From Geosiphon pyriformis (lineage: Eukaryota > Glomeromycota > Glomeromycetes > Archaeosporales > Geosiphonaceae), in assembly GCA_016748015.1 (NCBI GenBank), contig JAAOMT010000630.1:263254-327253 (forward strand): a stretch of 64,000 nucleotides of DNA. Reading direction: 5' to 3'. The notes beneath the pieces were generated by a model. It was not told the origin of the DNA and ran no database searches. It saw only the letters and a list, made by a program, of their open reading frames with translations. Every line of letters begins with the position of its first letter. Position 1 is the stretch's first letter. Both the position numbers and the translations under genes were made by a program. Below are positions 32,801 to 63,998 of the stretch, piece after piece.

Positions 32801-33412
32801 ATTAATTAAATTTTTGTAAGCATTGGCGTTATTAGATGCCTTGCGCTTTTTAATTTTATATCTATTGTCTTGATTCGCAAAGAGATGGTTTTCGTCAACT
32901 GTTTGACATTTATTTGAAGTCTCTGCTTGTTGAGCCATGGCAGCTGCTATATCCATTTTGTTTGGTAATAATTGATCAAATGAATCATCAAAGCCAGAAA
33001 AATCATTTAATTCATCCCCGGTTGTGTATGAGTGAGGCGAGTTAATTAATGACTGAGATAAAGCTATTGTATCTAGGGGACTCAACGCAAACAAATCAGG
33101 GGCGAAAAGGGCAGCATGTTCAGGTGAAGAAACTGACTCATTTTCAATTTTCCATTGCAGATTTGAATAGTTCGTAAAATCATTTTGTTGGGAGGAGTTT
33201 CCCAAGTTAGTCGTATTTGCGGCGATTAGTGCTTGTAATTGAGCCTCAAACCCAGCGTTCGTGATGTTGGAAGAAGCGGGACTCGAACTTTCAAGAAGCG
33301 AAGAATTTGTAAGGTTGTCAAAATAGGTTTGGCACATTAAGTCTTGTAGGTCATCGTTTGTGATCGACTGCATTGGGAGTGTGTTGAGTGTAGAATTACT
33401 TTCGTCCATCAT
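29810..33412 (-). CDS. SRE1: Sterol regulatory element-binding protein (Sre1-type), full length
   Basis: Membrane-bound transcription factor that is cleaved to release its N-terminal bHLH-ZIP part when sterol or oxygen falls. Four exons: 33412-32488, 32395-31570, 31484-31135, 31080-29810, giving about 1123 aa. Order: Ser/Asn-rich activation region; bHLH-ZIP about 366-460 with AIERRYRNNINDR, carrying the Tyr (about 375) diagnostic of SREBP instead of the usual Arg; two hydrophobic segments (about 514-528, RALMALFMCITFFAPP, and about 583-600); then a long regulatory C-terminus. The segments are normally translated as separate open frames; the joins restore TM2 across exons 2-3. Exon 4 begins at the second of two AGs (CAGAG). 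Confidence 0.88.
31095..31124. repeat. C12-A8-T10 homopolymer block
   Basis: Three back-to-back homopolymers in the last intron of the SREBP gene, between donor and acceptor. Prone to slippage and to sequencing error. Confidence 0.9.
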
Positions 33413-33429
33413 GATATTTACAAATTGCG

Positions 33430-34378
33430 AAAAATTATCCCGTATTTTACAAAATATCAAAGTTTTAAATAGGTTGATTTTAATGTTAAAAATTAATTTT
33501 TTGGCAGGGTAGACATTAAATAATTAGTGAAATCGTTATCATTTGTTGGTTAGAGGAAAAGAGTAGCGGAACTAAGAACCAATCGAAGGTATAGTGCAAG
33601 ACACTTAAAGACTAAAATCACGTGATTTTTCCCCATTTTTGAGGGTAGAATATATATTAGGCGGTTTTATGCTATTTTCCGGGAAAATCACGCAACTTCA
33701 TGCTAATTATTGTGATTGTGATTTGTTCTGACTCGTATTTTGGCATTTTTTGTTTGCATGATAATTTAATTTGGGTAATTTGGCTGAAATCTTAAAAATA
33801 AAATTGGAAAATGTATAGTACTATTTTTTTTGTTAAAATATTATATTTATTTTAATGATTTTAAAATGATTTTATAATTACATACATATATATATTTATA
33901 TTTTAATATTTTTAAAAAAATTAAAAAAAAAGCAATTAAATTATTATAAATTAAAGAAAGATGTTTTTTTATGATGTTATAAAAACCAATATTTTTTGCT
34001 TTTGCCAAATTAAGAAATTACATTTATCAACAAAGTGTGGATTTATATATTCAAAAACTAAATATGTCTTATTATAAATACAGCTTATGCATTTTTTATA
34101 TTTAAATTTATATTAAAATTACATTAAGCTAAAACAATCCGTTTTCTTGCAAGTCAGTATGAGTCGAAAACGTTTGTGCATTATTAAGGAGAAAGGTATT
34201 ATTATAAACAAATCATTGTTAGAATGACTCACCTAATCAATCATTTGCTCTTTTCACTTAATATAGACTTTGTGTTACCTTTTAAAACCTATCAAAAGGA
34301 ACATGGAACGCAGCCAAAAGAAAATAATTTTTTTCTTGTCTTCTCTTTAAAAATTTCAACAGATCAGCTGGCGACAAG
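33430..34378. other. AT-rich intergenic region
   Basis: Between the divergent SREBP and CBS-PB1 genes. Apart from the E-box at 33614 and a related AAAATCACG at about 33684, I see only AT-rich sequence and an ATATAT run near 33883. Confidence 0.5.
33614..33629. promoter_or_regulatory. Palindromic E-box upstream of the SREBP gene
   Basis: A perfect 16-bp palindrome with core TCACGTGA, about 200 bp upstream of the SREBP start codon. bHLH proteins bind CACGTG, and SREBP also binds E-boxes because of its Tyr substitution. Autoregulation is an inference. Confidence 0.5.
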
Positions 34379-36842
34379 ATGTCCTCCACTACTTATCGAA
34401 CTCGAAAATCTTCTCCACAGAGTAGTGGGTTTCCTACCCCGGCACAAAGTCGTGAGACTTCTTCTGAAAGAGGCTCAACTGTAAGTGATACAGCTCGTCA
34501 AAGACAGTCAAAGAAGGATGAGGTAATTTAGAAACCAACATCCTAAACTATTGACGGTCTTTGGAGTTTTTACCACTGATCTATCTTAGGGTGCTTTGAA
34601 CTTACACTTACAATTTTTTACCAACTTTTCTGTAGGCAATACGCAAAAAAGCCGAACATGACCTCTCAAGCAAAAATAGGCGCTCAAGAAAACCAAGACA
34701 ATTATCTAACAGTCAAAAAATGGATGGAACAGTTGCCGCCTTGCGACCAACTCAAGCTCTTACTGTTCGGGAAAATTTCTTGGTAGAAGAGGCAGCACAG
34801 TTCATGGCTGCCAAACGTGCCGACTGTGTCCTCGTTATTGACTCTGAAGAACACTTATCGGGTATTTTCACAGCCAAAGATCTGGCTTTTCGTGTAGTGG
34901 GTGATGGATTAGACGCAAGAACTACCACAGTAGCTAAGATCATGACCAGAGAGCCAAAATGTGTAAAGCTTGATACGTCGGCTACATTTGCTTTAGAGAC
35001 GATGGTTGACCGGGGTTTCAGGCATCTTGTATGCTGAGTATTTATACTATTAGTTCTTGCGATCTTTAATTATTTGACTAATCATTTCTAACAACATCAT
35101 CATATCATATTTAAAGCCGATTTGTAACGAAGATGGCGATGTTGTTGGTCTGCTTGACATTACGAAATGTTTATATGAAGCTCTTGAAAAAATGGAACGT
35201 GCATATGGTTCATCAAAAAAGTTATATGATGCACTGGAAGGCGTGGAAAAAGAATGGTCTAATCAACCGGCTCACATAATACAATATCTTGATATTTTAC
35301 GTGAAAAGATGTCTTGTCCGGATTTAACAACAGTGTTGGATGAACGATCGGTACCTGTTTTCGTCAGTATTCGTACCTCCGTGAGGGATGCAGCCCGCAT
35401 GATGCGAGAACACCGTACTACAGCTGTTCTAGTAATGGAACATGATGTGATCGCTGGTATCTTCACTAGTAAAGATATTGTATTAAGAGTCATCGCGGCT
35501 GGTCTTGATCCTTCGACTTGCCCTGTGGTCAAAGTAATGACACCACATCCTGACACTGCTTCATCAAATACAAGCATCCTTGATGCTTTAAAAAAGATGT
35601 ATGGTAAAGATCATATTTTTATTAAAAAATTAATTTCCGATATGGAGTCGAAAGTTTCTATGCACCTTCTCCTTTCAATAGCAAGTTTTGTGCCCTTTGG
35701 TGAATTTCTTTTTGCCAAATGATACCATATACAGTCCTTGTTATCCAAGGGGAGAGATAAGAAAATCATTTCAAAATTTTATTTTTAGAGGAAACAAACT
35801 TCAACAGTGCTTTTCTCACTGAATTCTGAACTGACATATTACACCGCATTTTCATTGTATTAAGAATAGAATTTTGTTTAATGATCGGTGCTAACAATTA
35901 TCTTTTTGATCGCTAGACGGTCATTTTCTAAATCTTCCGGTTGTTGATAGCGGTCACATTATGGGAATGGTTGACGTGTTAAAACTAACTTATGCAACCA
36001 TGGAACAGGTAAATAAAAGCCCGAAATTCCTTTAATTTTGGGATTATCACTAATGAGTTTACCCTTTTGCTTGTTTACAGATGTATTCCATTCAAGGGCA
36101 AGATAATCATGAGTCTAGCGCTGGTCCAATGTGGGGACGATTTTGGAATTCTTTGAATAATGAAGATAATGAATCAGCCGTTTCAGATTCTATATCACCC
36201 TCACAAAGTGCCTCCAATATACCTCCCCCTTCACCAGCCTCTCATATGAGAGGCTCAGGTCACATTTCACCAATCCCCGAAATTCATCCTAGTGAATCTG
36301 CATCAGCTATTGATGATAGTGGTTCGATGGCATCTTTTGTCAGAGGACATGATGAAAATATGTTCACCTTCAAATTCAAATCACCAGCTGGCAAAACTCA
36401 TCGATTTACCGTCGATTATCATCATCTCTACGACCTGAGAAACCATGTTGCCTCAAAGCTTCCGAAGACGATAAAAGCTTTCACGTTAGCTTACGTAGAT
36501 GATGACAATGATCAGGTTATCATGTCAAGCGATGAAGATGTGATCGACGCCGTGAAAATTGCCCAGCGGCAGGGTCTTTCTCGAGTCTTATTGCATGTTA
36601 ACGAAATTGAGGAAAAGAAATCCAGTTCAAAGTCTCGAGGTAGTCGAACACAAAGTGAAGAAGAATATGGGGAAGATGATTCGCAAGACAAGAAAAGTAG
36701 GAGGAAGAGACGAACTAAAAATTTTGAACGTCAAATTCCACCACCGCTGCCAGCTGGAAACGATATTATACTACCTGCGGCGCTCATAACGCTTGGTATC
36801 GTCATCGTAGGAGTATTTGCTGTAACAAAATTTGTACGCTAA
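34379..36842 (+). CDS. Four-CBS plus PB1 domain tail-anchored protein (Mug70-like)
   Basis: CBS pairs usually bind adenosyl ligands; the PB1 domain mediates protein pairing. The biological role in fungi is unclear. Five exons: 34379-34522, 34636-35028, 35117-35603, 35917-36008, 36081-36842, giving 625 aa. After a Ser-rich N-terminus come four CBS repeats, seen in the repeated pattern DCVLVID...LSGIFTAKDLAFRVV, LPICNEDGDVVGLLDI, TAVLVMEHDVIAGIFTSKDI, LPVVDSGHIMGMVDVL. A PB1-like segment follows (FTFKFKSPAGKTHRF with the acidic DDDNDQVIMSSDEDV loop). A basic stretch then leads to a C-terminal transmembrane helix (IILPAALITLGIVIVGVFAV) and a short basic end, so it is tail-anchored. The architecture matches fission yeast Mug70-type proteins. 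Confidence 0.88.
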
Positions 36843-42820: not shown

Positions 42821-44098
42821 TTATTTTTCTTCGGTCACAGGATCACGAAAATCTGTCAGACCAGGAATTGAGATTCGAAATTGTTCTCCGTTAGAACAAT
42901 TATTGATGTCAATAGGAATATAGTGTTCTAAAGTTAAACCTTTTTCTGTTCCAACATCTTTTAATTTACCATTGACAGGGGAGGGTTCCGAAACATCGAC
43001 CTGTGAATGCCTTACCAGAAGGACAATAACAATACTGTCGACCATATTTACAGCTAAAATACATTTAAAAGATTAGACTTATGAAACCAAACGTTAAATT
43101 GTTGTTTTTTTTTTAAAAAAAAAAACGAGATAAAAATAATAAATATAATACTTACACCACTGCCCTGCAGCTAAAAAGAAGATCAAAGCCCTAATTAATG
43201 GATCATCCAACTTCTCATTTCTCAAATTCAAAATCACCATAGGAATTCCAAGTGTAATTGCGCTCAAGATTCTACTTTTGTTATCCTTCAAGAACTTTTT
43301 GAAAACTGGCGAGGTCAAACTATTTCGCTGCCGAGATTCCACACGTAAATTTAGAAGAATGATGAAGAGGCATGAGAGATAGAATAAGATTGTAAGACCA
43401 TTTGAAATTAGGAATAAGATTTGGTTTCGGAATTCGTTAAAAAGTTCGATTTGCCAATCAGTATCAGTCCTTTTCCAGGTTTGACCCCAGAATCTAGAAA
43501 AATATTTTATGTAAAATTCCGAGAAGTAGTTGGAAAATTCAAGTTTGAGAAATACTTACGTCGAAAGAATGGCTAAAGTGAATGAACCAAGAATCATCAA
43601 CAGCAACAATAAACGGATAATGTATTTTATTGCCTTATCTTTACAGGGAATCAAGGTTTGAGTTCTTGTAAAGATGTAAAGCAATGATAACATGGCTGCG
43701 ACCAAATAAAATCCAATGGATATTTCTCGTAGTATAGGACTCCAAATCAAATCATTGACCAAACCACAATAGCTTAATTGAAATGAGTTGATAAGGAATA
43801 AAATCCCACCAGTTGAGTAAGCTGTGCCAGCTAGAATATTTATCATTACGATTCTTTCCAAAACAAAATGAAGAATGTGAAAAATTCATATTTTTTGGCA
43901 TTAAATTACATCAATTAAAAAAATGGGTTTAAAATACCTGTTAATTTTTCCTAACGAAAGCAACAAAGTAAAGCTCACGATTGTAACAAGACCAATCGAG
44001 AATGGTGGTATTGCTTCGAGAACCACGTACATTTGTGTTTTAATAACATCAACGGTTTTTTCCTCAGTCAAAACACCGCACGAGTTGGTTTGGCTCAT
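42821..44098 (-). CDS. Seven-TM family protein, paralogue A
   Basis: Member of an unrecognised multi-pass membrane family with two more copies in this window. Four exons: 44098-43938, 43853-43560, 43493-43156, 43053-42821, with intron phases 2, 2, 1, giving 341 aa. Predicted helices: one in exon 1 (FSIGLVTIVSFTLLLSL), three in exon 2 (INILAGTAYSTGGILFLI; ISIGFYLVAAMLSLLYIF; IIRLLLLLMILGSFTLAIL), and in exon 3 LISNGLTILFYLSCLFIILL, ILSAITLGIPMVIL and ALIFFLAAGQW, the last running into NMVDSIVIVLL in exon 4. The N-terminus is about 30 residues with a CG motif (NSCGVL); the tail is polar. Seven helices with a likely outside N-terminus suggest a GPCR-like receptor. That is inference. Confidence 0.8.
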
Positions 44099-44109
44099 TA
44101 TGATTAATG

Positions 44110-44335
44110 AAGATTATGGTGGGTGGTGAGTGGTGTTGGTGGTGGTAGTGGTGGATGGTGAGTGGTGGTGAGTGGTGGTGAGTGGTGGTGAGTGGTGGTG
44201 AGTGGTGGTGAGTGGTGGTGGTGGTGGTGGTGGATGATGATGATTACGATGATAATGATAATGATGATGGTGATGATGATGGTGATGATGATGATGTTGT
44301 TAATAATAACAACAATAATAATAATAATGATGAAG
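44110..44335. repeat. GAGTGGTGGT minisatellite and GAT/AAT-rich tract
   Basis: Repeated GTGGTGAGTG units, then (GGT)n, (GAT)n and (AAT)n, immediately upstream of paralogue A's start codon. Open frames here translate to poly-His or poly-Trp/Met and are repeat artefacts. Confidence 0.9.
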
Positions 44336-45035
44336 GTAATGCCCAAAGACCAAAATTGTAGGAAAGTTAAATGCGAGAAAAATTTATAATAATAAAAATC
44401 ATTCAAGTATGAATCTTTTATAAGAAGCATCGATAAAAGAATATCTTTAACGCCAAACATGTTTGTCAAATATTTACAAATCCATATAAATTAGTGTTTA
44501 TTTAAAAATCTGTGGGATATAATTAATGTCGGTAATAGTTAAATTTTAATTCGGATGTTGATAAAGATATTATAAATTTTGGTAAATATTTTTATTACTA
44601 TTTGATATCCGTGAAGCTTTTGGTGAATAATCTTGGATCAACAATAAGTCTCATCTTTTCTTCGTATACAATGTATAAAGGACTCATTTAAGTTCATGAC
44701 ACGAGGTAAAAATTTCGAATTTCTCTAAACATTATGATAAAAAATTATTGGTAATTCACAAGAGAAACAAACAAATTTATTTCGAAACAAAAAGAAAAGT
44801 ATTGTTACACAAAATATTTTTCTCTTTTGTAGGCTTCACCCATTGAAGATTTAAAAATCAGAGTAAACAAAAATTCTAACGTATAATTTTTTTTATCAAA
44901 GTGATTTACGAATTACAAAATGATTGTGTGTACAATGAACAATGACGAAAAGCTTTAATTATGTGATTACTTTTTTAATAATTGTTTTAATCAAGCTATT
45001 TATTAAAATACAAAAAACTCGGTTTTGAATTCTCC

Positions 45036-45072
<37 letters not shown>

Positions 45073-45085
45073 TATCATCATCATC
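45036..45085. repeat. (CAT)n microsatellite
   Basis: About 16 CAT triplets with one ATT interruption. The overlapping open frame reads poly-His and is not supported as a gene. Confidence 0.9.
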
Positions 45086-45427
45086 TGTTACTGTTTACAG
45101 AAAACGGATATGAAATTACCAGTTTTGGAATATTTTTTTCTTGTATATCGAAAAAAAAAAAACCGAAATATCCGATCTTTAATGGTGATTATCTATATGA
45201 TGATCTAAAAATAGATGATATTTTTAGAAAACCAATCACACACACATACACATATACATACAACAAAATAGTTTCAAAATTATCTTTTTTTTTAATGAAA
45301 AGAGATCTTTCAGTGTTATTCCTAGAAAAAGATCTCTAAAAAAAATTTGAACAATCGACTTTTATATGGAATTATATCCTCATTAATTTTGGATGATTTA
45401 TTTGTTTTAAAATTATAACGAATTTTG

Positions 45428-45431
<4 letters not shown>

Positions 45432-45460
<29 letters not shown>

Positions 45461-45652
45461 GAGTGCAGCCCAACCGCTACCACCTATTACAATACAATCA
45501 CGAAAGATTTCAAAATAAGCGTGGTTCATGCTTTTTCTACACATGACCAGCCATGTATTTTGTTTTTAATAACAAAAAGGATTTAAACATAGGAAAATCA
45601 ATTTAAAATTTGAAAATCTTTGAATAAAAATTTTTAATAAAATTTATGTTTA

Positions 45653-45683
<31 letters not shown>
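45432..45683. repeat. Two (TTA)n arrays
   Basis: Arrays at about 45432-45459 and 45653-45683, separated by unique AT-rich sequence. Confidence 0.85.
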
Positions 45684-45689
45684 TTCATT

Positions 45690-47340
45690 TAATTCAATTC
45701 AATCTTAGATTTTAATTAGAAAAAGTAATTATTTTTATTTGTTATTAAATAAATTTTGTGATAAAGAAATTATTCAAGTTATTTAAATTGTACAATAATA
45801 AATTTTTTTAATCTTATTAATTTTGATTTTATTCAAAAAAAAATAAAAAAATAAGTGTTTAATTTCAATCTTTATTAATTCTGACAAATAACTTATTAAT
45901 ATATATACAACTTTTTTGGGAACATTATTTTTTTGGAATGAACATTAGGAACAATATTAAAATTTGATAAAGTAAAAAGACTATAAGTTCAAGAATTGAT
46001 TGGATAGTTGTTGTAGCATAATCTTTTGTAATTAATGATCATATTTCTTATTACTCGATAATTAAATTTCGATATCCGAATAAAGGTTTTGATTTTTGAT
46101 TTTATGTTTTCTATCTATCTCAAGACAATGAAATGAAATTCTAGAAAAGAATTATGCACATTTATTTATTTTCCAATTTCTATATCCAGATTGTAGATTA
46201 CCAAGTACTTATAAATTTAATTCACGTTATCTCATCAATAACATCAATAACATCAATATTTGAAATTTAATTATTTCAATTACCACAATTTTTATATTCT
46301 CAAAATTTGAAGTAATCATAATTTCTCTTTGAAAATGCTAATTACAATCAATTATCAATAATTGAAATTTTATTTTAACCAAATAATTTTTAACTTTAAT
46401 TAAATATTATTATAATTATCGAATTTTGAAATATATAAGTGATAATTTTATTAAAAATACTTTGAAATGTATAATTCAATGTTAAAAACTTGACAAAAGC
46501 AAAAAATATTACCCAAAAGTTTGAGAATATTATATGACAAAATTTTTCTAAAATTTGGTTATTAAAATTCATTTTTTTCTTTAAAAAAATAAGATTCCAA
46601 TTCTACTTAAAATTTTATTAAAATATTAAATATATGTAAATATAATCTATTATATCATCCAATTGCTACCAAAAAAATAAAAAACTTTATCATATCAATA
46701 CATTTTTTTTATAATTTTTTATAATTAAAAAAAATTATAAAGAGTCGAGTAATATTGATTAAATAAAACTTGAAAAGCTTTTAACTTTATTTAAAAAAAC
46801 GAAATAAAAAACAAAAGAACTTTATAACACATAAATTCTCTTAACCAAATTTGTTTTTAACTTTTTTGATCCTTGCAAAAAAACTAATAGGGTTTAAAGG
46901 TTATTTAGTCTATATTTTTTGGTTCATTCTAAAGTCCCTTCATAAAAAGGGAATTTTAAATTTTCATCAAAATCAACCCAAAACTTTCTAATATCAATAG
47001 GGATATCAGCATCAGCCAAAAAGTTTAAAACATTATATGACTTCTTAATTTTAGATTTAAATTGTAAATGAAATTAAATTCAATTAAAACATGAAAATAT
47101 TTTTCGCCCCAAATGAATTAATTTCCAAGTATTTTTAGTTTATTTCGATATTTTAAAATATTTTCTCTTTCGAAAAATATTTAGCCAAAGAGTTTTGATA
47201 AAATGCAAAGCTGGTTAAGAGTGAGAAATTTTTATTCTTCTTGAATATTCTAAAATATTAAATAATTTTGTTTAAAAATTCTCCAACAAATTGAGTGGAA
47301 ATACCGACAAAAGATTTTAGGATTACATAAATTTTTTTCA
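45690..47340. other. AT-rich region without recognisable genes
   Basis: I see no supported gene, RNA or element here, only AT-rich sequence. Confidence 0.5.
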
Positions 47341-47344
47341 AATC

Positions 47345-47437
47345 CTCTCTCTTCTTCTTCTTCTTCTTCTTCTTCTTCTTCTTCTTCTCCTCCTCCTTCT
47401 CCTCCTCCTTCTCCTCCTCCTTCTTTCTCTCTTCCCT
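47345..47437. repeat. (CTT)n / (CTC)n pyrimidine tract
   Basis: Long pure-pyrimidine run, a purine run on the other strand that could form triplex DNA. The minus-strand open frame reads Lys/Glu repeats and is rejected as a gene. Confidence 0.9.
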
Positions 47438-47677
47438 TCCCTCTAAATTTTTTATCATTTTTTCATGTCATAATAAAAACCATGACATTTGGTCAGAATA
47501 TTTTTTCTTTAAAACAATCGAAATCCCTCGATCTGAATCATGACCAAATTTAGTAATCATATTTTACAAAAGTGATTACAATAATCAGTATCCTTAACCA
47601 CGTTTTCCCAAAATCTTGAAAATCTCTACATCAAAAATGTACAAAGTTTATCCACGATTAAATATCAAAACAACCAT

Positions 47678-47735
47678 AACAACAACAACAACAACAACAA
47701 GAACAACAACAACAACAACAAAAACAAAAACAATC
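47678..47735. repeat. (CAA)n microsatellite
   Basis: CAA triplets with few interruptions, just upstream of the small open frame at 47831. Confidence 0.85.
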
Positions 47736-47830
47736 ATTGAACCTGCAAAACCCTTTCATCATTTCTAAAATATAAAAGTCTTTTACAAATAGCCCGATGA
47801 CGCAAATGAATTAAACCGTGTACTTTTAAA

Positions 47831-48121
47831 ATGGGACAAATCAATGATCGTAACAATTACATCACCTCCGAAAACACACATACATTGCTCAACGATCTTG
47901 ATTTCAATTTGTCAAAACTTTTTGAGGTCCTCGAGAGACTGTTGTTGGAAATTACACGACAAATGTACCGACTGACTCGCGTGGACAAAGTTTCTAAAAT
48001 TATTATCATGATGATGATCATTTGGGAAAAATTATTCAAATGTTTATCAAACTTCCATCTGGGGTCAATCCAATCTCAGCTCGTCATCTACTGGTTACTC
48101 TCTCAACAGGGAAATTTTTAA
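47831..48121 (+). CDS. Small hypothetical protein (96 aa), uncertain
   Basis: An ATG-started frame of 96 codons. A TATAAAAGTC element sits about 53 bp upstream (47771-47780); the same ten bases occur upstream of paralogue B. The protein begins MGQIND (a possible myristoylation glycine) and is rich in Leu/Ile/Arg in its middle (LFEVLERLLLEITRQMYRL), likely helical. No family is recognised. It could be the first exon of a longer gene or a chance frame. Confidence 0.3.
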   Translation: MGQINDRNNYITSENTHTLLNDLDFNLSKLFEVLERLLLEITRQMYRLTRVDKVSKIIIMMMIIWEKLFKCLSNFHLGSIQSQLVIYWLLSQQGNF

Positions 48122-48653
48122 ACTAAAAAAAAACATGATATAAAAAAGGTCTGCCTAGGGCTGAATATCTCTTAATGTAAAAACAGTTTGCAGCTGTAAT
48201 TTAAGCCTCTTTATTCCTAATCCTACCTCTTTAATCAAAAAATAAATCAATTCCAATATTTATTTTTTCGGATGGCTGAATCTCGGCATTCAAATTAAAA
48301 AAGTTTGTTTAAATGATTTTATGCTAAATTTTCTTTTTTACCTTTTCACCAATAAATTATAAAGCAAAAATTATATTTTTTCTAGTAGATTCTCTTGATA
48401 TTCTGTGATTGCTATTCGAGGTCTAATAAATGTTTCGTATGTTCACGAAACAACAATTGAGAGCTTGTATTTTTTTTTATTTGCCGACAGTCACCGAAAA
48501 TTTGCCTAATCCCGTATTCAGAGTAATATTGTAAAAATTTATTTTTTTTGATTTTTATGATGCCATTAAATTTATGCTTTTTAGATTCTGGTTAATTGTA
48601 TTTGCCCTCACTTCGAAAAAGTTTTTTGCATCTCTTGACTAAAGATCATCGAA

Positions 48654-49121
48654 ATGCACTCTACTAGAACCGATCAAAATCCTTGTGATCAATTTTATTC
48701 CTATCAATTGTACGACCACCATCATATTAATAAAGAAATGACTCATATTACCCAAAACGAAGCAGCAGCAACAGACTGGGCATCTAATACCCTGCTGCAA
48801 ATATTTCCATCACGAGAAATTTACAGGAAAAATTTAACGACAAAAGTACGATTGGATAAAATTTGGAATTCAATAATTCCTAACAATAGTCGGAAAGACG
48901 TAGAACAGCAAAGATTCGAAAATCAGAGTAATATCCCCATTGAAAAATCTGGAATTTTAACCTATTCTTCAACAGATTCTGATAGTTCTGATAGTACCAT
49001 TGATACTCCAAATTCTTGGTCTTTACAATTTAATGGAACCTTTGAAGATTGGAATGAGGATAATTTCGAAATTCCATTATTCGATTTTCAGATTTATAAT
49101 AATGCTACAACTACAACAACG

Positions 49122-49156
<35 letters not shown>

Positions 49157-49934
49157 CAACGCCACCGCCACTGGCAAAACCAAGGAGTCGATAAGACATA
49201 ATTGGAATATAAAAAACAAGAAATCAATTTCCCTTATGCAACAAAATCCCACTCCAGACTCAAATTTGAATGACATAACTCCAATGACCAAAATTCAGCC
49301 TGCGCATTTATCAGACTACTCAATTGATACCGATTCATTGAACTTGTCACCTAAAAATAGGACTTCATTTTCCTCCTCAATAACCTCATCAACTATTGGC
49401 CTATTATCTAATGGCTTCTCATCAACCACAACCCTTAATTCATCACCTCAACAAGCCACACTAAATATAGACCGTCTAGCAGCCCTTCGTATCATCAAAC
49501 CTTCTCATCCTTACATTCGACAAAATCGATACCCACAACATAACCTTATAGCCTGTTCAAAGATTGAGGAAGAATTAAAACTCGATGATTTTTCGGAATC
49601 TCACCGGCTAGAAGCCATTGACTTTATTTATGACGATTCTGTCCTATTTGATAGCTCAAATAATGAAAAAGCACGTGCTTACCCTAATGCTCCTTTTCAA
49701 GATGAAGAATTAAAAAATTTGATTGCTGGAAAGTGGTTATTCTTTGCCGGATTCTTTTTTTTTCCATTATGGTTTATTGGTGCAATGTATAAAAAGCCAG
49801 GAGCTACACCATCAGATTTCATATGGAGACGAAGAAGTCGGAAAGCTGGCTTATTTTTTGTGATTGCAATAGGATTAATCGCTCTAGGGTTTGTTATTAT
49901 GAATCCGGATTATTTTGGAAAGAGGGGCAAATAG
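48654..49934 (+). CDS. Two-TM membrane protein with poly-Thr tract
   Basis: Single-exon gene, 426 aa. The N-terminal 350 residues are polar and probably disordered, rich in Ser/Thr/Asn, with a poly-Thr run encoded by an ACT repeat (about 49106-49157). The C-terminus holds a conserved-looking module: FQDEELKNLIAGKW, a hydrophobic helix (LFFAGFFFFPLWFIGAMY), a basic loop WRRRSRKAG, a second helix (LFFVIAIGLIALGFVIM) and a short basic tail. This two-helix hairpin with PLWxIGA and a W-R-R loop resembles the end of poorly characterised fungal membrane proteins. Function unknown. The start is the first ATG in frame. Confidence 0.72.
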
Positions 49935-49991
49935 GATGAGTAAATAATTAAATTGGCGAGTGTGGGAATGGACATTGAAATTAACCAATTT

Positions 49992-50029
<38 letters not shown>

Positions 50030-50031
50030 CG
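49992..50031. repeat. (GAT)n microsatellite
   Basis: About 13 GAT triplets in the 3' region of the two-TM gene. Confidence 0.9.
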
Positions 50032-51516
50032 AAAATTACTATTTCGAATTGGGATTTGAGTGTAAATGATCATCAATAATAGATGACAAATTCTAAAGAC
50101 AATTTATTCAAAATGAAATAATACCGATGATTTGTTTTTTTTTTTTGGAAATTATATTTTAGAAAATACATTATGAAAGTTATATATATTATTCAAAAAT
50201 CTTTAAATTAATTTGTAAAATACAAAAAATAAACGTATGTTTGGTTGAAATCGAGAAATGGCTAAAACGGACCGTTATTGTATTATTTTAGCAAAACAAG
50301 AACTTTTTAACAAAATATCAACTTGTGAATGCTTTATTTAGCATAATGAATATGAATTCTGAAAATGTCATTTGAAAATATTCGAAAATACAATGGATTT
50401 TTTTTTATCCTCAGTTTAGATATAATTTATTTTAAAGAAATATATTGTAAAGAGTTTTTAGAATATAATAATTTTTTAAAAAAAAATCTTTTTTTTTGGG
50501 TTAAAATATTACAATATATACTTTTAAAAATTGTATAATATATAATACCGGGTACAAAATTAAAAAATTAAGTTATTGTTTTCATTTTTTTTTTTGATTA
50601 TAAGAAGAAAAAAGAATTTCTAAAAACTAAAAAAAAAAAAAAAANNNNNNNNNNNNNNNNNNNNNNNNNNNNNNNNNNNNNNNNNNNNNNNNNNNNNNNN
50701 NNNNNNNTCAAAACGGAAAATATTTTTAAATATAAAATATTATTGCATAATCGCTTTCTTTTCAAACCTTAAATTTTAAACACTTTTTCTTTTTCTTTTT
50801 CTTACTTTATGATAGATTATTACAAATTGTAAAATATCTTTTATTTAATTGGTTCGATTTCTCATAGTAGTACTAATGTTATCACACATGAATGGTGTAA
50901 CAAATTTTATCTTAATTTGATTAAATTCTTGGAAAAAATATAGTTTTATTTTATTTTATTTTTAAAGAAAAAAAGTATTAATTCGAAATTTTTTTTTTAA
51001 TTTAAACTCTCGTTTCTAAATAAATAATTCTTACAGTTTTTTTCACTGTTAACTCTTTGTGTGAGTTAAATTTAAATTTGATTGCTAATCTTCTGAGTTA
51101 CCCTTTTGATTAAATCTATTGAAAAAGTACTGATAACAAAATTGGTGAAAATTTTCTCTTCCTTTTTTGGTTCATAGTGTCACTATGTCAAACAAAATTG
51201 AAGAGATAAAGAAAGTCCACATGATTTTTAAAAGTTAAAAATTAAAATCAACCGATAACGTTGAAGATTTTTTTCAAAGCTTGTAATATCAATACAAGAT
51301 GTTCATTATGGATATAAAAGTCCTTCATTGAGGAGATACTTTTTCTCATATTCTTCAAAACCATTTACCCTTAACGATCTTTGGTTCTTGTGAAAATTTT
51401 GACTCTTTCTTTCTTTCCTTCCTTCTTTCTTCCTCCTTTTACCCTCCCTTCTCTATTCTTCAATCTCAATCTTAAGCTCTTGGTTATAATTACCTGACTT
51501 TTTAAACAAACCAAAA
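50032..51516. other. AT-rich intergenic region with assembly gap
   Basis: No gene is seen on either side of the N run. The last part, before paralogue B, carries TATAAAAG at 51313-51320 and a pyrimidine-rich tract at about 51403-51455, plausible promoter elements for that gene. Confidence 0.5.
50645..50707. other. Assembly gap (63 N)
   Basis: Run of N between a poly-A stretch and AT-rich sequence. Its true length and content are unknown. Confidence 0.99.
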
Positions 51517-52147
51517 ATGAATTCAACAGCCTCTGACGCCCCTTTAAACGCGACTTCAGCAGGAAATATTACCGCGCTATTACCTCCTGATATTTTTACG
51601 AATCCATGTGGATTTTTACCACCAGATGTTATTGTTTTAATGGTTAGAATTAGGATGTACGGTGTCCTGCAGACAGCTACACCGTTAGCAATGGGATTAG
51701 TGTCATTGGTCAGTCTGCTTTTGTTAGCTTCGTTGAATCGATTGAATAGGTAATAAAAAAAAACATCTATATTATTCACAATAATTGTCGATTAGACTCT
51801 TACATTTTTTTGATTTTAAAATTTTTTTCAGATATACAATCCTAAATATCGTCACTGGCTTTATTTACATGTTTGGCGCTATATTTGCCATAACCAATTT
51901 AATCCAATTTGATTTCTGTGCTCTGACTCAATTATCAATGTGGAGCGCTTTCACGTATTGTTTATCCTTCGCTCTTTATAACATTGGTGGATTCTTGATT
52001 ATGGCCTATATTTATTTACAAGTCATTAACAAAATGGCCATCGAAAATGTGGTAGCGTCGAATTCCGCTCGAATTGTTTTATTGATTTTGATTTTCTTAA
52101 CTCAATTGTTGACTTGGCTTGCAAGGTAAATCACTAATCCTTTTTCT

Positions 52148-52211
<64 letters not shown>

Positions 52212-52915
52212 CTTGATGGTACACTAACAATCTACTTATCATAAAATGATGCACACAGTTATGTTGGATTGAAATTCTCCAAAACTCCAACAAACTATTG
52301 GAAAGTTGCTCAAACCCAGAAAGACCTCAACACAAACCTTCTTCTATCTTCACAAATCGTCTCAATTGTATTCTACACCGTGACATCTGGACTTGTCGTT
52401 AGAGGATTACACAAAAACTCAAAAGATTTCACAGGAACAACAAATGAATTTATGAAGTTGATTTTCAAGAATAGCGAAGGTCGGCTCTTGATTTCGTTCC
52501 TATTTGGCATTATAAATGCAATATTGGGATTCGCAAACACCCACACCAAGAGTTACAGTATTATTGGGCTGATATTAATATTAACTGGTCTCCAATGGGG
52601 TAAGTGACGTTCAATTTCTTAATTAGTGTTTGATCCCCCCCCCCTCACGAACTTTGTGAAATCGCAATTACTAATAGTTCTAATTTTTTCCCAATCTTTA
52701 CAATAGGTATAAACATGACCGATAGCATCATAGTAGTCGTGAAAGGTTCTTCAATGGATAAAACTAATCCTAAACAAATATCGGGCATGGTTATAAACCG
52801 AGAAACGAATAGAACCAGCGTGATTAACACCTCCTCTGGAACTCTTAGCGATAATACTGCTAATGAGAAAAGTGGAGCCATGGTGGAACACATGAGTATT
52901 GATTTAAGCAGTTGA
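51517..52915 (+). CDS. Seven-TM family protein, paralogue B
   Basis: Best-formed member of the family. Four exons: 51517-51749, 51832-52125, 52259-52599, 52707-52915, phases 2, 2, 1, giving 358 aa. The N-terminus (about 50 residues) has three N-glycosylation sequons (N2, N11, N17) and a PCGFLPPD motif matching SCGVL in paralogue A. Predicted helices: 54-73, 80-100, 114-140, 158-176, 202-222, 251-268 and 275-300. Shared family marks are LNR at the first junction, the NSEGRLLISFLFGI-type motif before helix 6 and QWGINMTDSIIVV at helix 7. The tail of about 60 residues is Ser/Thr/Asn-rich. Exon 2 is exactly as long (294 nt) as in paralogue A. Topology suggests a GPCR-like receptor; no DRY or NPxxY motif is present. 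Confidence 0.85.
52149..52209. repeat. (TAA)n microsatellite in intron
   Basis: About 20 AAT triplets within intron 2 of paralogue B. Confidence 0.9.
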
Positions 52916-53992
52916 TCCTAAAATCTTAGTAAAGTTAAATTTTCTCACTAAAGCCAAAGACTCGAGTTCATTGTATAAATAATTTTTACATTATAAGTCT
53001 TATCATCATATTAATATCTTAATAAAAATTACAAATGAATGATTTGATATCAAATAAGTCTTAACAAATAAGTTTAACTTTGAACCAAGATGTACAAAAA
53101 GGTGACGATAAGCAAGGATGACAAGCAGTTCTTTGACTTTTGATATTCGTTTATAGTGATAGATTTGTAATATGATAAATTTTGGATGAATTTCTCTTTT
53201 TGACTGTAATTTACTTGATGAATCTTGATCCGTGGGTAGCTTCAGAGAAAAAAAAACGAATTTCTTGTTATTATTAATCTTTGAGTTTTTTCAAAAAAAA
53301 TTTAATTCTTTTTAAATTTGTACATCCTGAATTATCACAATCTAAGCTAAACTAAACTAAATTAAACTAAACTTGTTACATGTACTACGGAGAATTTCAA
53401 ATTCACGGAATATCATTACATATACACACATACACACATACACACGCGTGTAAACAAGATATACACCGGAAATTTTTTTATCGGAGAATTTTAATTAAAC
53501 AAAGATTTACATTTGTCATATTAGTTACCTAGCGAGAATATTTTTTCACTATACAAAAATTTAAAATCTTTGAATTTACCTTTGTGATTTTTTTTTTTGT
53601 CAAGGTTTTTAATCACCTATATATAGCAAACTACTATCTTGAATAAATTTTATGAAAACTGAATTTCTGAGTGAAAGACAAAAAACTTGATTGAAAGATA
53701 AAAGTTGGGTAAAATGAATGAACAATTCTTCAAACAACAAAAAGAGGTTTAACAAAATTTTCAATTTAAAAGAGTTCTTGAACATATATATATATATATT
53801 TTTTTAATATTTCATTTTGCTCAAGAAAATCATATTAGTTGATAAAATAGATCATCATTCAATCTTTTATAATATCAAAAAGCGTTCTTGATAAAAAAAG
53901 AATTTTCTTAAATTACACGAGTATTTTTGATGAAAATTGTAAATAATTAATCTCTACATAATAAATTAAAAGATGGAATTTATCAACTTTTC

Positions 53993-54034
<42 letters not shown>

Positions 54035-55367
54035 TGTTTATCTCAAGATACTTAAATTATGTACTAGGAACATTAATTAATAAAGTAAAAGTAAGATAAA
54101 ATAAAAAATTTATTATAAGTTTCAGATTAAAATTATTTTGATTTTTAAAAAAATTCCCTTAATTTTTTAATTAGTGATCATCTAAATTATAATTTAAAAC
54201 CTCGGGTTCACATTTTTTTTTTTTTTTTTTTGAATATACGAAACAAGGTAAAAATTAAAACAATTTTTGAATCCCCTTTTTGAAAAACTTTAATTAAAAA
54301 TTATCCGATAAAAAATAAACAAACCTGAATATTTATTTGTTAAAAAAAAAAAAAAAAAATGTTTTTTTTTTAAGCTAGGTTCTCCGATTTTAACTTTTTC
54401 CTACACTATTGTTTAATCAGATTTACATGAAACGAAATGTAATTACAGAACTAAATATTAGGAATTAGTTAATTAGTTAGTTAGTTAGTTAATTGTGATA
54501 GATTTTTATTTTAATTGAAAATTAAAAACTTGTGATAACATTATTTCAAATCTCTTTTGTTCATAAAAAAAGTGATTGAAAAAAAAATATTATCAGTAAA
54601 GAGTTTTATAGAAAAATATTTTATACTTTTACAATTTATTGCTTTTTTCAAGCCCTTACTTCTCCTCCTCCCCCCCCCCCCCAAAAAAAAAACTATTAAT
54701 ATTTTTTCTAGGTTCCAGAACTGATATATTTTTTTTAAATATTCAAGTTAAAAACAATTTTTTGTTTACTATTTTCCAATCATTTTTCTCGAAACATACA
54801 TTTCCAAAAATCTATCGGTTAAATTCAAATCTGACACAGTAATAAAGATTTATTCAAGATACATGCAATTCTCTCTAGGTTAGAAATTTTTTTTTTCGGT
54901 TTCAGCATCAGTATTAGCATCGTCATCATTCAAAAACCCCTAACATAATAGGTAAATATTTTTCAAATCTTACCATTAAATCAGCAATCGAATTTTTTAT
55001 ATATATAAATAAATAAATTATCAATAAATCAATAAATCAATAAATCACATTTCTAAAACACGGATACATAGATTCACTTCAGAGTAATCCCCTTCAAAGT
55101 TCCTTCAATGAATTAATCAAGCTATGGCGTAAAACCGGTCCACTTTAACAATTCAAAAGCATTCAGTGAGTTATCATGAATCAAAACAAATGACCTGATT
55201 TTCTCTGATTTTTTCCGGAATTGTCTGGTAAAAAACTAGCATGAATCCTTTGACTCTTTAACTTTGAACGATATAAGCTCGTGGAAAGAAATTTTAGTTA
55301 TCAACCTGGAAAATGAAAGTAATTTAACACGAAAATCTCTGCTCAAATAAATGTAGCGCTTTTCAAA
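52916..55367. other. AT-rich intergenic region with repeats
   Basis: No gene seen. Contains CTAAACTAAA near 53343-53370, (CACATA)n near 53420-53440, (TAA)n at 53994-54033, poly-T/poly-A runs near 54211-54231 and 54342-54359, (TTAG)n near 54469-54491, a C run at 54670-54682 and (AATC)n near 55018-55046. Confidence 0.55.
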
Positions 55368-56517
55368 ATGCCGATATCGCTAAAGGTTCTCATCGCAGTA
55401 CCACAAATCACGCAAGGTGTTGTTGCGATAATGAGTTTTATGATTTTGTTGGCGGTTAGGAAACTCAATAGGTAAAATATTTGGCGGAATAATATTTCTT
55501 ACACATCTTCTCAAACTCGGAGGTCAATCTTTTTAATTCTTCAACTTGATTTAATCTACTACCAAAGGATTGTGTTCATAAATATCGTATCTGGCCTATT
55601 ATTCTTTTTAGCTGGACTAGTTCTAATCTCGTCCTCCTTCAATATCAATCTACCTTTGAATCCAGCTATCATCATTCTTTATGCTATCACCTTTATAGGA
55701 GGAATGGTATTATGGCTAGTGTATATTTTTGCCAGAAGTTATTCGTTGATACCGGGAAGGGAAACATGTTTTAGAAAATTTATTCAGTTTTTATTGTTTT
55801 GTCCAATTTTCGTTATCACTGGGCTTTTGATTCTTTTCTTGTAAGTATCCTGAAAAAAAATATTTTAATCAAGGAAATCACTATTTTCTAATCTTTTATA
55901 AATATTCTGATATGACCTAACTCCTATTCCAAACACTTTTGCAAAATAGAATATATGGACTTTCTGAAATAGAAGATGGTGAGCTAGTTGAATACCGACA
56001 TCCAGAAATAAATCAACTCTTTTTCTTGCTAGCGATTGGATCCACAATCATTTTCGACCTTATCTGTTCTTTAATACTCATCCTTAGTATTCGACATACA
56101 CTTGGAATATCGTCTGGACATGCAAGCGAAATTGTTAAATTAGTGTTAAGAAACTCGGAGATACGGTTGTTCGTTGGTTTAGCGTTGGGAATCACATTTG
56201 TGATTTTAAATGTAATTTTAAACGTGATGCTGAATCGAAAAGATGGACCACCAGCCGATGGTATTATTAGTTTTTCGGTATGGTTGATTGCTGTCAAGTG
56301 GGGTAAGTGATGAGAATTGGGTTCGAAAATTTGAATTTTGAAAATGGAAATAGCTTTTAGTCTTTTCCAGTTAATTTAACCTCCCCTCCCCCCCCCCCCC
56401 CCCCCCCCCATTTCCATTTATTCAGTGATATACATGGTGGATAGTTTAATAGCCCTTATCGCAACCCCATCAAATTTGGTCATTTTCACCCCAGATTCTT
56501 CACTAAACATTCCATGA
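55368..56517 (+). CDS. Seven-TM family protein, paralogue C (short N-terminus)
   Basis: Third family member. Four exons: 55368-55471, 55568-55840, 55950-56302, 56426-56517, the same intron phases 2, 2, 1, giving 273 aa. It keeps LNR at junction 1, the NSEIRLFVGLALGI motif before helix 6 and KW joined to VIYMVDSLIAL at helix 7. It lacks the Cys-containing N-terminal ectodomain of A and B, and its tail is only about 20 residues. In-frame sequence just upstream of the ATG (QINVALFK) resembles the family but is closed by a stop further up. An unseen upstream exon, or true loss of the ectodomain, are both possible. Confidence 0.78.
56388..56409. repeat. Poly-C run
   Basis: About 22 C in the last intron of paralogue C, close to the acceptor. 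Confidence 0.95.
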
Positions 56518-57956
56518 GATGATAATCAACAAATAAACCTTGGGAACCAAATCAACAAAATTACACAAATAATCGCGCTTCTCATGAGATTTTTGACTTG
56601 ACACCTACAAATTGTGAAGGAATTATCACAAACACCTTATGCAGCAGATTTACAAAAATACTTTTCAAAAAAGCAAAACGCTTGTTGGGAATTTGGAAAT
56701 TAGTAATATCAGGATATTATTAGTTTTTCAATTTCAAAGAAACTTGTGTCGTCTGTTAACGTTACAACAATAAAAGGGACAAAATACTCAGAAATAGAAT
56801 AATTTAATTTATCATAATTTGAAGAAAGAATAAAGGATATTATTTTAACGAGAATGATGAGAATGGAGATTCATGACTGAGTTGAAGCTGAAGTATTATG
56901 AAAAAGATAGTAGTGCATTGGATAAGGAACTCAATCACCAGAAACATCCTTGACAATTAATATATAGAGGATGTCAGTTGATGCGTGAGAATAGGAATTC
57001 TAAATTATCTTGAAAAATTAGGTTTAACTTTACTGTACAGTTTCAAAAAGGGGATGGTATAATCAAAAAAATTGATACAGTGGAATTAAAAAAATTCATG
57101 CCCAAGTTATATAGTGTCTTAAGTTTCTAAAATTATCTCATTAGCTTTTTATCATCAGAGATGAATACAATGCTATTTTGAAATAGTTCAATTTTAATTG
57201 GTATTTTTAAAAGATACACCATAAGTTGCTGATTTGTAAACCTCAATTTATACCCTTAAGTAAAAAATCTACCATTCCATATTATAATTCAAAGAGGAAA
57301 ATCTTTACTTTTAATTATAAAGTTTTTCATTAAATTAACAGATTTTAATTTTTTCCTAAAGTGATCACAAAAAAAACAATTTTAAATACTTTATATTCTC
57401 CAAATTTTCGATTTAAAAAAAATCAATAAATAAAGCAAAATTATTAGATTATTTCCAATTTGAGATATATTAAAAAAAAAAAAAAACAAAAATTTTTCAT
57501 TTCTAAAAGGTTAAAAATAAAAATAAAAATAAAAATAAAAATAAAAATAAAAACACTAAAAATTGAATAATCTAGTGATTACTTTTCGAATAATATCATT
57601 TTCAGAAATCTGATCAATTTTCCTTTCCAGTGAAAAAACTTTTATGCAATCTCTTAAAACTTTCCTATATATATATACAGTATATTTATATCGAATAAAT
57701 CAAAAAAAAATGCGAGATTTTGAATTGTAATTTTTTTTCCCATTTGAAGTAATGTGATAATATCAATAACCATCTTTTTAGTAAATATCAATGAAAATGA
57801 ATCAAATGATGCCTTTGATCTTTCAAGTCCATTTACATTAATGCATCGTTAAATAGAAATTTTTTTCATTTTTTTTTGTATAATATAAATAAGCGTAGCT
57901 TTGTTGCCATTAAAAATAATTATTCCAATTTGTTTCTTTTCAATTTTCCGCTTGAA
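56518..57956. other. AT-rich intergenic region
   Basis: No gene seen. Includes (AAAAAT)n at about 57513-57553 and TATATATATA near 57666-57676. Confidence 0.5.
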
Positions 57957-58562
57957 ATGACGAAAAAATTTATTTCACCTCTTTTCAGCTTCTTTTTCAT
58001 CTTTATTCTCATGGTTATTCATATCACGCCAAATGCAGCTATTTCAACCAACAAATCTGTTAAATCACGAAAACCTCATAAAAGTCATAATCGCAGGCCA
58101 GTCCAATTTTACCAGCCACGTAAAGCCTCAAAAAAGCCAGTTAAAAGGCCTCGCAAATCTGAATATTCTATATCAAAACGATGTTTTAATGACGATGAAA
58201 TTCTAGATTATGATTTTTATCCATGTTATCCGGAAGATTATTATTGCTATGATGATGATGATGATATATACCCATGTTACGATGATTTTGATTATGACGA
58301 TTGTGATTACTACCCTTGCTCTGACTATTCCGATTACTATCCTTTTTTTGATGATTATAATTGTTATTCACCCCAACCTGATTATTGTGAATGCTATCCA
58401 CATCCAAACCCATATCTGATTCCAATTCCTGTACCTTGCCCCGAACCATGCCCAATTGAATGCTGCGTTCCTTGTCCTCCAGTACCTTGTCTCGAACCAC
58501 GTCCATGTCCAATACCTTGTCGCGATATTTGTTTGCCTGAACCATGCCCTATCCCATGCTAA
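57957..58562 (+). CDS. Small secreted Asp/Tyr- and Cys/Pro-rich protein
   Basis: Single exon, 201 aa. A signal peptide (FSFFFIFILMVIHITPNAA) is followed by a strongly basic region (Lys/Arg/His/Pro) ending SISKR, a plausible Kex2 site. The mature part is acidic and Tyr-rich with YPCY-type repeats (DDDDDIYPCYDDFDYDD), then a C-terminal Pro/Cys array of PCPxPC units. There are more than 20 cysteines. No family is recognised; the layout fits secreted structural, wall or effector-like proteins, and metal binding by the Asp/Cys stretches is conceivable. The ATG at 57957 is the first in frame and places the signal peptide at the N-terminus. Confidence 0.72.
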   Translation: MTKKFISPLFSFFFIFILMVIHITPNAAISTNKSVKSRKPHKSHNRRPVQFYQPRKASKKPVKRPRKSEYSISKRCFNDDEILDYDFYPCYPEDYYCYDDDDDIYPCYDDFDYDDCDYYPCSDYSDYYPFFDDYNCYSPQPDYCECYPHPNPYLIPIPVPCPEPCPIECCVPCPPVPCLEPRPCPIPCRDICLPEPCPIPC

Positions 58563-60140: not shown

Positions 60141-61681
60141 ATGTCCGACATTTCTAACTTTCAAATAAAATTTTGTACAGAGATTGGAAAATTTCTAGAG
60201 CAAAACAATACACATGATGTAATTATTCATGTCGGCCAAGAACCAAACATAAAAAAAATATAAGGCCAATTCTCTTGTACTGTGTGCAAGGTCGCGTTAC
60301 TTTCGCATCGGTCGATCAGCTGATTGGGAAAAGAAAGAAGATGGAATCTTTGTATTCAAAAAGCCAAAAATTTTACCAGAAATGTTCGAAATTATTTTAA
60401 GGTATGTTCTTAAATATTTAGCGTTTAAAGAACATTTTTAAAATATGCTGAAAATTCATTTGCCTTTTTTAAAAACGGAATAGATTTTTATACAGCGCAA
60501 CTGTTGACCTGAAAGGTCAGGAAGGTCCAGAAATTTTGAAACTTTTGGTTGCTGTTGATGAATTAGAATTGGATGATTTATCGGCTCATATACAACAATA
60601 CTTGATCAAAGAGAAACATGAATGGTTACACCAAGATCCCGTGCAAGTGCTTGATATTGTTTTCCGCCATGAAGCGTGTCACAGCCTCCGTGATTATTGT
60701 CTCGAGGCTATTTGTGAAAACCCGAAATTAAATTTTGAATCAAAGGGTTTTCACTCTATCGACAGATCAATTCTTTTAATGCTCGTGAAACGGGATGACC
60801 TTGACATTGAAGAAATAAAAATTTGGGAGTATTTAATTGATTGGGGTACAGCACAACACACATCTTTGAAAAAGGAGGTTTCTAAATGGTCTCGGGAAGA
60901 CTTCATGGCAGTAGCAGCTACCTTAGAACCACTGCTACCTCTAATCCGATGGGAAGAGATTAAGTCATCTGATTTTCAGCACAAGGTTTTCTCTTATAAG
61001 CGGGTATTCCCTGAGCCTCTTTTTGACAACATCATTGAGCATTATCTGAATTCGAGTATACCAATTCAATCTACTTTGAAACCTCGATTACGAGCTCAAA
61101 TTGACTCCACTATAATTGATAAGAAGATCGCAAGAGTAATCGGTAATTGGATAGCAGGAACGAACTCGATATCAGAGCAAAAGCATTCCTACAAATTTGA
61201 AAACTTTTTTCGCGCCAGTCGGCATGGATTTGATAATGGAAATTTTCATAGTAGATGTGATAATAAAGGACCTACATTCACTATCGTAAAGCTTTCATCA
61301 AAAAATATTATTGTTGGCGGTTATAATCCTCTAAACTGGAACAGTAATGGAACTTATCAAAATTCGAATTCTACTTTTATTTTTCAGTTTTCGGATTCGA
61401 GTAGTCAATCAGGGAAGATTGGTCGAATTACCACCAATTACCAATATGCTGTTTATAATAATCCTAGTTATGGACCAACTTTTGGTGGTGGACATGATTT
61501 TTATATAAGTGGAAATTATTTGTACCACAGTTCAGTACATACCTATCCCAACATTTTTTCAAGCCTTGGAAATAGTAGCCTACAAATGCAAGACTATGAA
61601 GTTTTTAAAGTTTTACAACCATTTAACTTGATTTTTTCACTTTTAAGAGTGGTATCCAACATGATTATTTCTTTGCTCTAA
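60141..61681 (+). CDS. BTB-BACK-TLDc protein with a one-base frame break
   Basis: BTB proteins of this type act as Cullin-3 adaptors; TLDc is a fold linked to oxidative stress. Two exons: 60141-60401 and 60484-61681. Order: BTB (HDVIIHVGQEP, LVLCARSRYF, PEMFEIILR), BACK-like helices (VLDIVFRHEACHSLRDYCLEAI), then TLDc (VIGNWIAG, FRASRHGFDNGNFH, TIVKLSSKNIIVGGYNPLNW, FGGGHDFYI, DYEVFKVL). In exon 1 a run of eight A (about 60250-60257) shifts the frame to a stop; removing one A restores KANSLVLCARS. The exon is 261 nt against 260 in its paralogue at 63677, so one extra base explains it. Everything else is intact, so either an assembly error or a very recent pseudogene. Confidence 0.75.
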
Positions 61682-63600: not shown

Positions 63601-63676
63601 CTCATAATTGGTGTTTGGCCATAAAAACTGTCCAGCTTATAATTTTACTACAGAACTCGAGAATAAGACATTAAAT

Positions 63677-63998
63677 ATGTCTGAAATTTCCGACTTTCAA
63701 AAAAAGTTTTTCGTTGATATTGGGAAAATTCTGGAACAAGACGATGCACATGATGTAATTATTTACGCTGGTGAAGAACCAAGCATTAAAGAATATAAAG
63801 CTCATTCTCTTATACTATGCGCGAGGTCGCATTACTTTTCCACCGCTCTATCAGCTGATTGGGCAAAGAAAGAAGATGGAATTTTTGTGTTTAAAAAGCC
63901 AAACATTTCACCCGAAGTTTTTGAAATTATTTTGAAGTATGTTTTTGCATATTTAGTATAATAAAATTTTTAAAAGATACTAAAAGTTCATTCGTATT
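63677..63998 (+). CDS. BTB-domain protein, 5' part only (cut by window end)
   Basis: Paralogue of the gene at 60141. Exon 1 is 63677-63936 (260 nt, phase 2), ending before GTATGT exactly where the other gene has its intron. It encodes the BTB core: MSEISDFQKKF, DVIIYAGEEP, KAHSLILCARSHYFSTALS, then FKKPNISPEVFEIIL. The second exon, expected to carry BACK and probably TLDc, lies beyond the window. Here the A-run site reads ATTAAAGAATATAAA and stays in frame. Confidence 0.75.

What the first reader, a model, noticed from the sequence alone, without database searches (positions are those of the whole stretch)
42821..56517. Undescribed seven-TM receptor-like family, three copies with one exon plan
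Genes at 42821-44098 (-), 51517-52915 (+) and 55368-56517 (+) share four exons, intron phases 2-2-1, the LNR junction, the NSExR(L/I) motif before helix 6 and a (Q/K)W...NMxDSI-type motif at helix 7. A and B have identical exon-2 length (294 nt). I recognise no known family. Seven helices, a glycosylable Cys-bearing N-terminus and a Ser/Thr tail suggest surface receptors expanded in this lineage.
Basis: partly seen in the sequence, partly recalled or inferred. Interest (0 to 1): 0.75.

Follow-up and report, generated by a model that had tools for sequence, protein, structure and literature searches.

The report
Unclassified seven-helix fungal receptor-like family
Three genes in this window, and two more elsewhere in the same genome, encode an old family of seven-helix membrane proteins that look like surface receptors but fit none of the receptor classes described for fungi; what they sense is unknown.

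Summary
A, B and C are four-exon genes with GT-AG introns in phases 2-2-1. The same genome has two more copies, D and E, with the same plan; all 15 introns of the five genes fall at the same three alignment columns in the same phase. Pairwise identity is 23-40%: an old family, not a recent burst. Some details fail: NSExR is only in B and C, and the N-terminal Cys and sequons are not general; C lacks both the N-terminal Cys and the Cys before helix 3.

Best reading: an unclassified GPCR-like receptor family; coupling and ligand untested.

The parts
43938..44098 (-). gene A exon 1 (N-terminus with Cys7, helix 1)
   Evidence: ATG, GT-AG intron, phase 2; in-frame stop upstream at 44116
43560..43853 (-). 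gene A exon 2 (294 nt; helices 2-4, Cys83 before helix 3)
43156..43493 (-). gene A exon 3 (helices 5-6 and first half of helix 7)
42821..43053 (-). gene A exon 4 (second half of helix 7, cytoplasmic tail, stop); protein 341 aa
51517..51749 (+). gene B exon 1 (N-terminus with three N-glycosylation sequons and Cys31, helix 1)
51832..52125 (+). gene B exon 2 (294 nt; helices 2-4)
52259..52599 (+). gene B exon 3 (helices 5-7a)
52707..52915 (+). gene B exon 4 (helix 7b, tail with 17 Ser/Thr of 56); protein 358 aa
55368..55471 (+). gene C exon 1 (very short N-terminus without Cys, helix 1)
   Evidence: in-frame stop upstream at 55320
55568..55840 (+). gene C exon 2 (273 nt; helices 2-4, the Cys-bearing loop before helix 3 is shortened)
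55950..56302 (+). gene C exon 3 (helices 5-7a)
56426..56517 (+). gene C exon 4 (helix 7b, 17-residue tail); protein 273 aa

Best explanation
A, B, C (and D, E elsewhere in the genome) are paralogous seven-transmembrane, G-protein-coupled-receptor-like proteins that fit none of the described fungal GPCR classes. Shown: gene structures, homology, seven hydrophobic segments, basic residues at the ends predicted to be cytoplasmic. Partly supported, by a moderate-confidence model of helices 2-7a: the helix arrangement of GPCRs and rhodopsins. Inferred mechanism: the N-terminus lies outside the cell, tied in A, B, D and E by a disulfide to the loop before helix 3; a ligand (unknown; peptide, lipid or small plant- or fungus-derived signal) binds the variable outer half; the bundle then shifts at the more conserved inner half (invariant Asn in helix 2, Tyr in helix 3, Arg at the start of helix 6, Asp-Ser in helix 7) and activates a heterotrimeric G protein. 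The genome encodes G-alpha subunits. C, lacking the cysteine pair and the N-terminus, has either another ligand or another role.
Confidence: 0.6

Rival explanations
1. The family is a strongly diverged branch of a known fungal GPCR class, most plausibly class I (Ste2-like pheromone receptors, class D) or class V (cAMP-receptor-like), that profile methods no longer recognise.
Against: Z differences under 1 are ties. ScSte2 scores below its own shuffles against the family profile (21.8 v mean 24.5, z -1.07, 30 shuffles). Five of the six CAR-like receptors are within about 1 s.d. of their shuffles; one (L043) reached z 3.35 with 33.2 against a shuffle maximum of 34.2. hhalign family v CAR is no better than reversed controls; the profiles are small (5 and 6 sequences) and the test had no positive control, so its power is low. 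Neither STE2 nor Dicty_CAR Pfam models match any member at E <= 10.
Confidence: 0.2
2. A seven-helix membrane protein that is not a receptor: transporter, lipid enzyme or trafficking/chaperone protein with the same number of helices.
For: Seven-helix counts and moderate Z to GPCRs do not prove function; Foldseek's best E-values include ABC transporter helices. Fungi hold very many unclassified 7-TM proteins (141,666 in 1,357 species, PMC12842992, passages).
Against: No transporter or enzyme family over its cut-off in Pfam or NCBIfam. No internal 3+3 repeat as in SWEET/PQ-loop proteins found by a small-profile hhalign. Helices 1-6, as drawn by hand, hold no conserved acidic or His column and helix 7 one Asp, unlike hydrolases of the PAQR/CREST kind (recalled). 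The 50 structural rows listed are all GPCR or rhodopsin.
Confidence: 0.17
3. A light-sensing microbial rhodopsin (class IX) or its retinal-free relative.
For: 33 of the 50 structural rows listed are microbial rhodopsins.
Against: No conserved retinal-binding Lys in helix 7; only C has a Lys in that helix. No Bac_rhodopsin Pfam match.
Confidence: 0.02
4. Gene models are chance or decayed copies.
For: C lacks the N-terminal part and the Cys loop; B and C have long branches in the tree.
Against: Open frames across all exons, GT-AG introns at the same columns in five genes.
Confidence: 0.01

Closest known systems
Ste2 (fungal class I / class D pheromone receptor; PDB 7ad3, 7qa8)
   Different: No sequence similarity above shuffled controls, no STE2 Pfam match at E <= 10; the rank is a tie with other GPCRs and rhodopsins.
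cAMP-receptor-like GPCRs (class V, Pfam Dicty_CAR) of the same genome (L042-L046, L048)
   Same: Seven helices, Cys before helix 3, Asn in helix 7 (by eye).
   Different: Profile comparison no better than reversed; the CAR-like genes match Pfam (four loci over the cut-off), this family does not.
Microbial rhodopsins (class IX)
   Same: Helix arrangement in the partial model (33 of 50 rows listed).
   Different: No conserved retinal Lys.
DUF6534 proteins, proposed as a new fungal GPCR class (PMC12842992)
   Same: Unclassified fungal 7-TM proteins found outside the known classes.
   Different: The candidates there come mostly from Agaricomycetes (passages); no DUF6534 match appears for this family.

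Membership tests
GPCR-like 7-TM receptor (general) | Seven transmembrane helices | tested here: met
   Family-averaged hydropathy (seventh segment split by smoothing); seven long helices in the unspliced whole-A model, though low confidence.
GPCR-like 7-TM receptor (general) | N-terminus outside, C-terminus inside | tested here: met
   Prediction only: conserved basic columns at the ends predicted cytoplasmic, sequons in the N-terminus of B, D, E. Loop charge counts alone are a weak signal.
GPCR-like 7-TM receptor (general) | GPCR helix arrangement | tested here: inconclusive
GPCR-like 7-TM receptor (general) | Activates a heterotrimeric G protein on ligand binding | not testable with these tools
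   G-alpha genes exist in the genome; coupling needs an experiment.
The 17 fungal GPCR classes (table of PMC13308352, section 5 read) | Match to the class's Pfam model | tested here: not met
   None of the Pfam entries of that table is among the seven families found for the five members at E <= 10; HMMER's filters drop most matches above about 0.1.
Class I, Ste2 | Sequence homology to Ste2 | tested here: not met
   ScSte2 v family profile z -1.07 against 30 shuffles; only one Ste2 sequence was available.
Class I, Ste2 | Class D fold | tested here: inconclusive
   Ste2 is rank 1 but tied.
Class V, cAMP receptor-like | Profile homology to Dicty_CAR proteins | tested here: not met
   hhalign with six CAR-like proteins of the same genome: probability 0.2%, reversed controls 0.3%; low power.
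Class IX, microbial opsins | Retinal-binding Lys in helix 7 | tested here: not met
   Lys in helix 7 in one of five members (C) only.
SWEET / PQ-loop transporters | Repeat of helices 1-3 in helices 5-7 | tested here: not met
   hhalign of the two halves gives nothing above the reversed control; no PQ-loop Pfam match.

The most novel reading that the evidence does not exclude
The family is a separate fungal GPCR class of this lineage, with its own activation motif (Asn in helix 2, Arg before helix 6, QWxxNxxDS in helix 7). Its members could be the unfound peptide-pheromone or host-signal receptors of these fungi, the structural counterpart of Ste2, which in Fusarium oxysporum serves both pheromone perception and growth towards root exudates (figure legend in PMC13308352 section 5).
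Probability: 0.12. Interest if true: 0.75.

Novelty: new variant of a known kind. Interest (0 to 1): 0.42.

Why it matters
Most fungal GPCRs are orphans (PMC13308352, abstract passage), and the classes are recognised by existing profiles, so families without a profile are overlooked. A small, clearly defined family with a conserved exon plan and a recognisable motif set would be a practical candidate list for signal receptors in a fungus of this kind. It is not rare as a type: a survey of 1,357 fungal species left 141,666 seven-helix proteins outside the GPCR classes (PMC12842992, passages), which keeps the interest moderate.

Tried and rejected
Pfam, NCBIfam for A, B, C (12), PHROGs for A only: best are single-member hits such as DUF1235 (E 0.0054), ABCC10_N (0.016, 15.1 bits against a cut-off of 26), TMEM220 (0.19) and bla_CfxA (0.054, 12.5 bits against 625); each of the seven Pfam families matches one member of five, so I take them as chance. 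PDB by sequence, A alone and the five-member profile: no match at E <= 10. Relatives elsewhere: viral contigs by profile (24: 56 pattern stretches, no relative) and by D (83: 5 stretches, none), genome contigs (bacteria and archaea) by A (75: 86 stretches, none). Other fungi could not be searched, so lineage-specificity is unknown. Pfam 7tm_1 in the genome: one hit under the cut-off with four stops inside, taken as chance. Git3 and STE2 (58) found nothing in the genome, but the tool says that such an answer does not show absence. Family v CAR by hhalign and family v Ste2 and CAR by my own profile alignment (65) gave no homology; one CAR protein of six (L043) stood out at z 3.35, not followed further; neither test had a positive control. 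Tree of the five genes: no supported fork, long branches for B, C and D (82), so the duplication order is unknown. Internal repeat: none found. The AM-fungus 18S primer AML2 (sequence recalled; it occurs with the name AML2 in 47 papers of the library) has no exact match in the genome, and the rRNA search failed twice, so the organism's identity stays open. Structures of other families not listed are not excluded.

Papers: PMC13308352 passages and section 5 (74, 76); PMC12842992, PMC3834313, PMC7490403, PMC8401276 and PMC12716839 passages only; the Fusarium Ste2/Ste3 papers (PMC9769807, PMC10794396, PMC7329813, PMC11124031) search listing and start of abstract only. Whether this family is in print: the listings of searches show no title or abstract start naming it, but they are capped lists of a partial library and no search was by sequence.

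Full report
1. Observation. Splicing at GT-AG sites gives A (341 aa), B (358 aa) and C (273 aa), each with four exons and intron phases 2-2-1; exon 2 is 294 nt in A and B and 273 nt in C. Two-sequence BLASTP between the spliced proteins gives 1.4e-33 (A/B), 2.5e-27 (A/C) and 3.5e-10 (B/C). In-frame stops lie close upstream of all three start codons.

2. The family in its genome. The window lies in an unnamed 124.7-Mb assembly of 406 contigs. Searches with each of the five proteins (at E <= 1; 27, 28 at E <= 10) together find only five loci: A, B, C and two more, D on contig C303 and E on C81. The tool scores only its best candidates, so five is a lower bound. D (311 aa) and E (325 aa) have the same four exons, exon 2 of 294 nt and phases 2-2-1. 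All 15 introns of the five genes fall at the same three alignment columns with the same phases. Identity between the ten pairs is 22.6-39.6%; A is nearer to E and D than to its neighbours B and C, and no fork of the tree is supported. The cluster therefore does not look like a recent tandem burst.

3. The motif before helix 6 is NSExR in B and C only; the Arg alone is invariant. The helix-7 motif is QW/KW..(N/Y)..DS, with W, D and S invariant. N-terminal sequons are in B, D and E. The N-terminal Cys and the Cys before helix 3 are present together in A, B, D and E and absent together in C, whose loop is also seven residues shorter. Joint presence and joint absence suggest, on one event, a disulfide between the N-terminus and the loop before helix 3. 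The tail varies from 13 to 64 residues; Ser+Thr make up about 30% of it in B, C, D and E and 14% in A.

4. Topology. Family-averaged hydropathy gives seven segments (the last is split in two by the smoothing). Conserved basic positions lie at or near the ends predicted cytoplasmic (A51, A54, A117, A134, A202, A226); loop charges alone are a weak signal. The only conserved acidic position inside the helices is the Asp of helix 7; another invariant polar position is an Asn in helix 2. The inner half of the helices is more conserved than the outer half (pair identity 0.389 v 0.304, permutation p = 0.03). Helix limits were set by hand, so this is a modest sign, but it is the pattern expected of receptors with one transducer and different ligands.

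5. Known families by sequence. No credible Pfam, NCBIfam, PHROG (A only) or PDB match. The 17 fungal GPCR classes with their Pfam models are listed in PMC13308352 (section 5); none of those models appears for any of the five members at E <= 10, with the caveat that HMMER's filters drop most weak matches. The genome does have ordinary class V receptors: four loci over the Dicty_CAR cut-off. A six-protein profile of CAR-like proteins and the family profile align no better than reversed controls. Yeast Ste2 scores below its shuffles against the family profile, and five of six CAR proteins lie near theirs; the sixth (L043) reaches z 3.35 but stays under its best shuffle. These tests use small profiles and had no positive control.

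7. Function. The best-supported reading is a GPCR-like surface receptor: extracellular N-terminus, variable outer half for a ligand, conserved inner half for a transducer. Three G-alpha loci in the genome have matches over the cut-off. Rhodopsin function is unlikely, since no helix-7 Lys is conserved. A SWEET/PQ-loop transporter is unlikely, since no internal repeat was found. Other transporters or enzymes cannot be excluded.

8. What is known. The AM-fungus study PMC3834313 reports one STE3 gene and no peptide pheromone genes, and says that the remaining pheromone receptors need new methods (passages). A survey of 1,357 fungal species leaves 141,666 seven-helix proteins outside the GPCR classes (PMC12842992, passages). 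So an unclassified family is a common thing in fungi; the conserved gene plan and motif set make this one easy to define. Whether the organism is an AM fungus was not established: the AML2 primer had no exact match, and the rRNA search did not run.

9. Verdict. The receptor reading is likely but unproven (0.6). On present tests it is not a member of any described fungal GPCR class; I rate it a new variant of the GPCR-like seven-helix kind. Interest 0.42.

Noticed in passing
window 20824-21303 (-): Exon of a phosducin-like protein (Pfam Phosducin, E 4.1e-12); phosducin-like proteins handle G-beta-gamma (recalled).
   Followed up: partly
window 25099-25851 (+): Serine/threonine kinase domain (Pkinase, E 2.6e-63). 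With ORFs upstream from about 21.6 kb it looks by eye like a MAPKKK of the Ste11/Bck1 kind; the two upstream ORFs scanned had no Pfam match.
   Followed up: partly
window 31515-33460 (-): Basic helix-loop-helix protein (Pfam HLH, E 5.5e-17 in 31515-32465).
   Followed up: partly
window 34720-36842 (+): CBS-domain pieces followed by a PB1 domain and a C-terminal hydrophobic stretch, probably one gene.
   Followed up: partly
window 57876-58562 (+): Downstream of gene C on the same strand: ORF with a hydrophobic N-terminal stretch and a Tyr/Cys/Pro/Asp-rich body, no Pfam match.
   Followed up: partly
window 60536-61681 (+) and 63608-63961 (+): A BACK-TLDc protein and a BTB domain, two genes or pieces of the BTB-TLDc kind.
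   Followed up: partly
L042, L043, L044, L045 (also L046, L048 below the cut-off): Class V cAMP-receptor-like GPCR genes of the same genome; by eye they share an exon plan that differs from the family studied here.
   Followed up: partly
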